Assembly (NCBI GenBank): GCA_002839645.1
Contig: PGYL01000031.1
Coordinates: 34,641 to 81,673, forward strand
DNA from: Methanomicrobiales archaeon HGW-Methanomicrobiales-2
Lineage (GTDB): Archaea > Halobacteriota > Methanomicrobia > Methanomicrobiales > Methanoculleaceae
Length of the DNA stretch: 47,033 nucleotides
Direction of reading: 5' to 3'
Position 1 is the first letter of the stretch. Each line of letters begins with the position of its first letter. The notes below the pieces were generated by a model. It made no database searches. It saw nothing but the letters and a program-made list of their open reading frames with translations, and was not told where the DNA came from. The position numbers and the translations under genes were made by a program. Below, one piece after another: positions 9,825 through 47,033 of the stretch.

Positions 9825-9991
9825 GAGGTCGCCCTGGAACGCCTTTGCGCGGAGGGAGCCTAGCACCTGACGGCGTTCACATTTTAGACGTACTGTCTTT
9901 CGCACCTTTGGCCAGTCGCCATTTACACTGTCGGTGCTCAAACTCCGTTCCTGGAGGAACGTCATCCTCTGATGCGTGGGTTCACAACTCA

Positions 9992-10176
9992 TGCACGGCT
10001 TTCCAGTGGATATCGCCACGCACTGCCCCCGTCCCCAAGGGGGCGGGGGAGGAGGCCGGAGGCCGGGCGGGGTGGGGGTTACATGCTCTCTTAAGGGATG
10101 GAGACAGGGGAAGGGGGCAAGCCCCCCTCCCCGTCAGCCCCTCCCCAATGGCGATATTCACCACGGTCCACTGCAT
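9992..10176 (+). repeat. Dispersed structured repeat, copy A
   Basis: First of three related copies in the window. The ends are inverted: CAGTGGATATCGCCA at 10004-10018 faces TGGCGATA (10149-10156) and TCCACTG (10167-10173). Inside are a perfect 11-bp stem (10026-10036 with 10039-10049, including one T:G pair), a GGCC-GGA-GGCC hairpin (10054-10064), a G-rich stretch able to form a quadruplex, and a GGGGGC-AA-GCCCCC hairpin (10113-10126) flanked by GGGG and CCCC. Copy B lies at 45928-46146; an inverted partial copy C is at the right edge. It has no coding frame worth calling. It may be a MITE or a structured RNA; the orientation is arbitrary. Confidence 0.8.
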
Positions 10177-10288
10177 CGGGTTTTCCATCTTTTAGATGTT
10201 TTACCTGTCACGACCCGTAACTGCCGGCGTCTCTACTCCCGCGGCTTGCCCCTCACACGGTTCACCCTTCGAACCCTTTCTACCGCCT

Positions 10289-45833: not shown

Positions 45834-45927
45834 TGCAGGGCTCCCCCCTGCTGTTTTCTTCCCAAGAACGGCTTTGTTGAACCCCCACTTGTTTGCTCCA
45901 GATGGCCGCAATCAGGGGTACTCGGGG

Positions 45928-46146
45928 GCACGGCTTTCCACCGGGTATCGCACCTGACGGTGCTCGTGCTCCGGATGCCCCATCCATCGCAATCGCCATG
46001 ACTGCCCCCGCCCCCTGGGGGCGGGGGAGGAGCGCGAAGCGCGGGCGGGGTGGGGGCTAGGTATCCCTTATGAGTTGGAGACGGGGGGGGACCCCCTCCC
46101 CGTCAGCCCCACCCCCAATGGCGATAGCCACCACGGTCCACGGCAT
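45928..46146 (+). repeat. Dispersed structured repeat, copy B
   Basis: Starts GCACGGCTTTCCACCGGG, aligned with copy A's GCACGGCTTTCCAGTGGA, and ends TGGCGATAGCCACCACGGT followed by CCACGGCAT. It has about 45 extra bases near its left end, then a second ATCGCCA at 45992-45998. The 11-bp stem (46005-46015 with 46017-46027) is fully Watson-Crick, with C where copy A has the T of its T:G pair. The next hairpin is GCGC-GAA-GCGC (46032-46042) instead of GGCC-GGA-GGCC in copy A, so the pairing is kept although the bases differ. A shorter G/C hairpin lies near 46084-46101. It sits between the antiporter and the ferritin-like gene. Confidence 0.8.
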
Positions 46147-46311
46147 GAGGAGATGCCCGAGAAAAATGGTCGTCCCGGGGACAAGCCGGGTCCGGCACCA
46201 GCCTCAGCAGGGTAAGGATGAAGATCAGAATAGGGTTTCAACAAAGCCCAAAAACTCTCTTACTTCCCTCTGCGCCCGGTGGGAAAAAGAGGCGGGGCGC
46301 GAGCCCCTGCC

Positions 46312-46767: not shown

Positions 46768-46981
46768 GGTTTCATGCACCGGTGGACAGTAGCACCCGGG
46801 ACTTTTAAACCTTATTAGGCCGGGCTTTGGTATGGTGTTGGACAAGGTGTGTGAGAGGCCCGCAGGTTTTCATGTGTGGTTGTCAGGGCAGCGATGATTG
46901 GGGAGGAAATCCGGGAGGTTCGAAGAGGCTGAGAAGCTTCGATTTGCGACAAACAAGGTGACCGAATCGAGGGAAAATCCG

Positions 46982-47033
46982 GATGCAGTGGACCGTGGGA
47001 GTATCGCCATGGGGGGTGGGGGCAGGGGAGGGG
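46982..47033 (-). repeat. Dispersed structured repeat, copy C (partial, inverted)
   Basis: GATGCAGTGGACCGTGG at 46982-46998 and TATCGCCAT at 47002-47010 are the reverse complement of the right end of copies A and B. They are followed by G-rich sequence matching the complement of the C-rich inner segment. The copy is inverted relative to A and B and cut by the window edge. The preceding 46846-46981 holds no gene that I can support. Confidence 0.75.

What the first reader, a model, noticed from the sequence alone, without database searches (positions are those of the whole stretch)
9992..10176. Dispersed element with inverted ends and covarying hairpins (copy A compared with B and C)
Three copies occur in 37 kb, two in one orientation and one inverted. 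The outer ends are inverted repeats (TATCGCCA facing TGGCGATA; CAGTGGA facing TCCACTG). Inside, stems keep pairing although their bases differ: GGCC/GGCC in A becomes GCGC/GCGC in B, and a T:G pair becomes C:G in the 11-bp stem. Paired changes suggest selection on structure, in RNA or in single-stranded DNA. The G-tracts could also form a quadruplex. It is either a MITE moved by an unseen transposase or a family of structured non-coding RNAs. No known family was recognised.
Basis: partly seen in the sequence, partly recalled or inferred. Interest (0 to 1): 0.78.

Follow-up and report, generated by a model that had tools for sequence, protein, structure and literature searches.

The report
Invertible hairpin repeats in methanogen genomes
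Between the genes of Methanoculleus archaea sit dozens of copies of a non-coding DNA repeat built from nested hairpins, which differ in presence and orientation from species to species; it looks like a partly transposon-carried DNA palindrome rather than an RNA gene.

Summary
Window 9992-10176 is one of at least 44 copies in a 2.78-Mb Methanoculleus genome; 34 of 35 congeneric genomes match. The core (10011-10156) has five helices with real covariation (24 of 45 pairs change on both sides; shuffles 9.0). Rfam has no such family. Relatives in another family of the order share the layout, some in tandem arrays.

Mobility is shown for a subset. Copy C lies in a 379-bp miniature transposon (GGCTTTGTTGAA ends); sister copies have perfect 8-bp target duplications, and a congener has a 1010-bp IS5-family element with such ends. 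Copy A lacks these ends.

An RNA gene is not favoured: helix mismatches are G.U 49, A.C 54, and cores occur in both orientations in 22 of 34 locus groups. Two cases are clean in-place inversions; most others look like replacement. Copies favour gaps between convergent genes (29 of 49 classed).

Best reading: a selfish or neutral DNA palindrome, partly IS5-spread, remodelled by hairpin-directed strand switching (inferred). The strand tests are not unanimous.

The parts
9992..10010 (+). left outer arm (L arm, TGCACGGCTTTCCAGTGGA)
   Evidence: sharp similarity start at 9990-9995 among copies; L arm on the left in most copies
10011..10156 (+). core of copy A, five helices
   Evidence: alignment A1, pair counts
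10011..10018 (+). P1 5' side TATCGCCA, pairs with 10149-10156
   Evidence: 97.0% of cells paired
10023..10051 (+). P2 hairpin (C-rich then G-rich)
   Evidence: 95.7% paired
10054..10064 (+). P3 hairpin GGCC-GGA-GGCC (GCGC-GAA-GCGC in others)
   Evidence: 4 of 4 pairs with two-sided changes
10069..10077 (+). P4 5' side GGGGTGGGG, pairs with 10138-10146
   Evidence: 91.6% paired; its middle pair fails in 17 of 29
10078..10102 (+). variable stretch, can form a small hairpin (P5)
   Evidence: alignment; fold
10103..10135 (+). P6 hairpin, G tract facing C tract
   Evidence: 95.1% paired
10149..10156 (+). P1 3' side TGGCGATA
10157..10189 (+). right outer arm (R arm, contains CCACGGTCCACTG)
   Evidence: 64 matches with at most 1 mismatch in the genome, reversed-pattern control 13
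45870..46248 (+). IS5-type miniature element carrying copy C (GGCTTTGTTGAACCCC ... GGGTTTCAACAAAGCC)
   Evidence: flank repeat CAAGAAC/CAAAAAC is 6 of 7, imperfect
45949..45991 (+). double-hairpin module inserted in the left arm of copy C
   Evidence: linker at 45964, both hairpins
45992..46126 (+). core of copy C (GCGC variant of P3)
46969..47033 (-). third copy, inverted, truncated by the contig end

Best explanation
A family of non-coding, hairpin-forming DNA repeats (arms of about 20-35 nt around a 146-nt core with five helices) that lives in Methanoculleus intergenic DNA, mostly 3' of genes. Shown: high copy number, genus-wide spread, covarying stems, presence/absence and orientation differences at orthologous sites, two clean in-place inversions, and IS5-type carriage of a subset with 8-bp target duplications. 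Inferred: the repeat acts as DNA rather than RNA; paired stem changes, arm exchange (R/R, L/L, swapped) and inversions arise by strand switching in the extruded hairpin during replication or repair; the IS5 transposase spreads the carried subset in trans, while other copies persist and are rewritten in place or replaced from elsewhere. No host function is required; tolerance at gene 3' ends would explain the position.
For: Copies: 41 loci, 44 distinct after local re-search; 34 of 35 congeners. Covariation: 24 of 45 pairs two-sided versus 9.0 shuffled and 3-8 slid, 73 cores. Strand symmetry: G.U 49, A.C 54 in 73 cores, 16 versus 23 in 29 cores of the window's genome, against RNase P RNA 71 versus 18 in 30 genomes; fold z equal on both strands in 59 cores (-4.08, -4.01). 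Inversion: a 240-bp segment flipped at 93% identity between L038 and L244 with breakpoints within about 9 bp; site s1 flipped between G000 and G025 at 92%. Orientation: 390 same, 309 inverted, 8 both, 231 empty ordered pairs; 22 of 34 locus groups hold an inverted pair. IS5 carriage: perfect 8-bp repeats in L018, L205, L277, L327, L329 (5 of 9 TIR pairs); empty site L236; 1010-bp IS with an 8-bp repeat, transposase NF033579 at 231 bits versus cut-off 140. Position: 29 convergent, 17 tandem, 3 divergent; background 7, 20, 12.
Against: Opposite-oriented orthologous cores are usually not closest relatives: 34 pairs, mean identity 0.773, median percentile 0.275 among other cores, 3 of 34 above the background 95%; most therefore look like replacement or separate insertion, not simple inversion. 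RNAalifold-chosen pairs on other alignments gave G.U 41 versus A.C 4 (59 cores, 15 pairs) and 60 versus 10 (88 cores, 17 pairs), which would favour RNA; those folds did not recover the architecture and the program rewards G.U. In the window's genome the given strand folds better in 23 of 29 cores (p 0.003). The within-genus RNase P control is too small to discriminate (8 versus 6). No target duplication was seen at copies without IS5 ends. Of the 6 PF01609 matches in G000 only one locus was read, and it had no such ends.
Confidence: 0.55

Rival explanations
1. A structured non-coding RNA family transcribed from many loci; the stems are kept by selection on the RNA.
For: Strong covariation; the same layout in another family of the order; slight fold preference for the given strand in G000; RNAalifold counts favouring G.U.
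Against: A.C as frequent as G.U with the named structure; equal fold z on both strands in 59 cores; both orientations at orthologous sites; no Rfam family.
Confidence: 0.15
2. An element with its own site-specific system: a recombinase or transposase recognises the TATCGCCA inverted ends, flips or copies the core, and has not been recognised.
For: Sharp boundaries; orientation flips within conserved arms (e.g. L074 versus L057); arm-only versions without core in G034 and G024.
Against: No common neighbouring gene was noticed (not searched systematically); no Y1 transposase in 32 of 40 genomes including G000; no target duplication at the core ends.
Confidence: 0.17
3. A host-used 3' feature (transcription terminator, insulator or gyrase/nucleoid site between convergent genes), kept by selection in either orientation, like roles proposed for REP sequences.
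For: Convergent bias 29 of 49 against 7 of 39 background gaps, p 9e-5; a palindrome works in both orientations.
Against: 231 of 938 ordered orthologous pairs are empty; copy A's gap is 477 nt in G000 and 71, 64 and 45 nt in G024, G016, G018, so no single copy is needed. Neutral tolerance at 3' ends predicts the same bias.
Confidence: 0.13

Closest known systems
MITEs of IS5-family insertion sequences
   Same: copy C and sisters: terminal repeats, 8-bp target duplication, no transposase inside, autonomous IS5 partner in a congener
   Different: most copies, including A, lack these ends; the cargo is a multi-helix covarying core that also occurs without the vehicle
REP/BIME/REPIN repeats with RAYT transposases
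   Same: extragenic palindromes, many copies, inverted arms, proposed termination/supercoiling roles (PMC3733652 passages)
   Different: core is far larger (REPs 20-40 bp per that abstract); no Y1 transposase in G000 or in 32 of 40 genomes
CGTC-tagged REPs
   Same: palindromic repeats without a dedicated transposase (PMC3733652 passages)
   Different: 'Methano' does not occur in that text; size and multi-helix layout differ
Double-hairpin elements of organelle genomes
   Same: the about 45-nt nested module has two hairpins with changing stems and a fixed linker
   Different: the papers found concern mostly fungal and algal mitochondria (search listing only); here archaeal and nested in a larger repeat
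BOX (Streptococcus) and bcr1 (Bacillus) structured repeats (recalled, not looked up)
   Same: modular intergenic repeats of about 150 nt with conserved folding
   Different: different hosts and sequence; in-place inversion as here is not something I recall for them

Membership tests
MITE of IS5 family (copy C type) | terminal inverted repeats shared with an autonomous element | tested here: met
   GGCTYTGTTGAA ends in copy C and in the 1010-bp IS of L344
MITE of IS5 family (copy C type) | target-site duplication of fixed length | tested here: met
   perfect 8 bp in 5 of 9 TIR pairs; copy C itself imperfect, 6 of 7; IS in L344 perfect 8 bp
MITE of IS5 family (copy C type) | partner transposase is IS5 family | tested here: met
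   NF033579 231 bits, cut-off 140; PF01609 E 9e-22; in G001, not shown in G000
MITE of IS5 family (copy A) | terminal inverted repeats shared with an autonomous element | tested here: not met
   no GGCTTTGTTGAA pair around A (one search lists C6 matches only at 80510 and 80874)
REPIN/RAYT system | Y1 (RAYT) transposase in the genome | tested here: not met
   PF01797 absent from G000; match in 8 of 40 genomes
REPIN/RAYT system | GTAG tag at hairpin foot | not tested
   not scored systematically
Structured ncRNA family | matches a curated RNA family | tested here: not met
   only a tRNA at gathering score in the window; weak chance hits otherwise
Structured ncRNA family | covarying helices | tested here: met
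Structured ncRNA family | strand asymmetry (G.U tolerated, A.C not) | tested here: inconclusive
   49 versus 54 and 16 versus 23 against it; RNAalifold-chosen pairs for it; fold z mixed
Structured ncRNA family | transcript | not testable with these tools
   no RNA-seq available
Double-hairpin element (nested module) | two hairpins joined by a short linker, stems variable | tested here: met
   8 of 78 linker sites have both hairpins; controls 0 of 31 and 2 of 92
G-quadruplex | four G tracts folding together | not testable with these tools
   no quadruplex predictor or assay used

The most novel reading that the evidence does not exclude
An order-wide class of archaeal DNA palindromes whose layout, not sequence, is inherited: dispersed in Methanoculleus, tandem (periods about 266 and 251) in others, kept pairing-competent and flipped in place by DNA strand switching, and repeatedly combined with unrelated mobile units such as IS5 miniature elements and double-hairpin modules. 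Covariation here would be written by a mutational mechanism rather than by selection on RNA.
Probability: 0.3. Interest if true: 0.78.

Novelty: new variant of a known kind. Interest (0 to 1): 0.57.

Why it matters
Covariation is usually read as proof of a functional RNA. This family shows strong covariation with little strand asymmetry and with orientation changes, so it offers many natural replicates for testing whether replication template switching can write compensatory changes without RNA selection (the idea of PMC8794818). It also bears on how intergenic DNA of methanogens turns over, and on assembly breaks in these genomes.

Tried and rejected
RAYT/REPIN: rejected for G000 because no Y1 transposase was found. 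IS6-type transposase as partner of the GGCTTTGTTGAA ends: considered because of the 8-bp duplication, rejected because PF13610 is absent from 39 of 40 genomes and the partner found is IS5. Viral carriage: exact pattern, 0 matches in viral contigs. Known RNA: Rfam at gathering and lax thresholds. TnpB link: one copy (L113) seems to abut a tnpB-like fragment, judged by eye; not followed. Simple inversion as the general explanation of opposite orientations: weakened. Literature for Methanoculleus repeats: searches showed no description of this repeat; PMC6749651 (passages) lists 45- and 51-nt satellite families in Methanoculleus marisnigri that I could not compare. RNAalifold on the MAFFT alignment of other-genome cores failed to recover the architecture.

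Dropped rows: A1 holds 29 of 39 cores with both ends found (10 left out for insertions, deletions or odd length; 6 of 45 clusters had no recognisable ends). A2 holds 73 matches from 69 chosen loci; searches used 59 of the 73 (length 125-172). One search matched 59 of 61 genomes; 30 loci were returned and used. One search classed 57 places; 7 unclear and 1 inside an ORF are outside the 49; two gaps (L018, L020) hold two copies each and are not independent. The background gaps include element-bearing ones. Genes were called with my own codon model.

Full report
Observation. The element at 9992-10176 is real. Its outer ends are inverted repeats and it folds better than shuffled sequence on both strands (z -3.61 and -2.61; as DNA z -3.30). 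The window has copy A, copy C at 45992-46146 in the same orientation, and an inverted third copy cut by the contig end at 47033.

Copy number and spread. DNA search of the own genome gave 41 strong loci (only 40 of 94 first-look candidates were scored). Local re-search of fetched DNA gave 45 clusters, 44 distinct. An R-arm pattern gave 64 places, reversed-pattern control 13; 18 more places were read, most of them partial or diverged copies, one (L127) apparently chance. In the genus 34 of 35 genomes match. With a covariance model, 45 of 159 genomes of the order match: 33 of the window's genus, one sister-genus genome (G129) strongly while another of that genus (G100) has none, and 11 more distant genomes weakly. 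Scored more fully, G011 has 63 matches, G129 41, G030 28, G021 25, and G070, G099, G065 5, 6 and 4.

Anatomy. The core (10011-10156) has P1 TATCGCCA/TGGCGATA, P2, P3 (GGCC-GGA-GGCC), P4 closing a variable stretch, and the P6 hairpin. Outside lie an L arm and an R arm. In G000 34 copies are L|R, 4 R|R, 1 L|L, the rest incomplete or mixed, 5 not scored, of 53 examined.

Covariation. In 29 cores of G000 only 4 of 45 pairs change on both sides (shuffled 1.6). In 73 cores of other genomes 24 of 45 do (shuffled 9.0; slid versions 3-8; 94.1% of cells paired). Control (a) ignores relatedness, and the alignment was fitted to the structure, so the excess is somewhat inflated.

DNA or RNA. With the named structure, mismatches at Watson-Crick columns are G.U 49 and A.C 54 (73 cores), 12 and 17 (best 37), 16 and 23 (G000). 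RNase P RNA across the order gave 71 and 18, but within nine Methanoculleus only 8 and 6. Against this reading, RNAalifold-chosen pairs gave 41 and 4 or 60 and 10, on folds that did not recover the architecture; on the G000 alignment they gave 15 and 12. Fold z-scores: given strand -4.33, opposite -3.82 in 29 cores (given better in 23); -4.08 and -4.01 in 59 cores (30 of 59); RNase P -1.27 and -0.68 (20 of 30). I take DNA as more likely, not proven.

Sites in other species. Copy A lies between convergent genes. The orthologous gap is 477 nt in G000 and 71, 64 and 45 nt in G024, G016, G018; L082 (G034) has both arms but no core; others hold rearranged versions, with the core flipped between conserved halves in L074. 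Over all held loci, flank-matched ordered pairs are 390 same, 309 inverted, 8 both, 231 empty, in 34 locus groups, 22 with at least one inverted pair (pairs counted in both directions, not independent). Two inversions are clean: 240 bp at 93% between L038 and L244, and site s1 between G000 and G025 at 92%. Yet inverted orthologous cores are generally not closest kin (34 pairs, median percentile 0.275; same-orientation 42 pairs, 0.658), so replacement or ectopic copying must be common.

Vehicles. Copy C sits in a 379-bp element with GGCTTTGTTGAA ends. Nine such TIR pairs were found in held loci; five have perfect 8-bp flank repeats; copy C's is imperfect. L018 against L236 shows the empty site. 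Identical vehicle ends at contig ends (L324, L326, L328) suggest recent copies collapsed in assembly (inference). L344 of G001 holds a 1010-bp IS with such ends, an 8-bp repeat and an IS5 transposase. Copy A has no such ends. That some IS5 subgroups make 8-bp duplications is recalled.

Nested module. A double-hairpin module (GCACC hairpin, nine-base linker, second hairpin with varying stem) is inserted in arms and core; 8 of 78 linker sites in G000 DNA have both hairpins (controls 0 of 31, 2 of 92). Site s1 carries it inside the core in G010 and not in G000.

Distant relatives. L138 (G065) and L137/L144 (G099), in another family of the order, share the layout with different sequence (E 2e-7 to 5e-8 in that search; the free fold of L138 keeps P2 and P3 but pairs the 3' part differently). 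L138 and L159 show a 251-bp tandem array, L154 of G011 a 266-bp array of 4.1 units; L147 and L144 gave none.

Position. 29 convergent, 17 tandem, 3 divergent; background gaps of 50 nt or more 7, 20, 12; p 9e-5.

Verdict. A new variety of extragenic palindromic repeat, carried in part by IS5 miniature elements and remodelled at the DNA level by a mechanism that I infer to be strand switching. RNA function is less likely but not excluded.

Noticed in passing
45949-45991; L040; L118; L119: About 45-nt double-hairpin modules with variable but paired stems, inserted into arms and core; one clean presence/absence case between G010 and G000 at site s1.
   Followed up: partly
L113 (G000:C48:10704-11904): An R arm with a truncated core abuts what reads like a tnpB fragment (by eye, no profile search).
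   Followed up: no
window 46969-47033; L019, L124, L125, L126, L324, L326, L328: Several contigs of this assembly end inside or next to copies of the repeat or its IS5-type vehicle.
   Followed up: partly
L154 (G011), L138/L159 (G065): Tandem arrays of the unit with periods 266 and 251.
   Followed up: partly
L119, L131, L139: Some copies share longer flanks (CCCTACGAAACAACTGA on the left) that may mark a second vehicle type, also in G129.
   Followed up: no
L117 (G000:C66:22942-24142): A copy with a run of N and very long G/C homopolymers, probably an assembly artefact.
   Followed up: no
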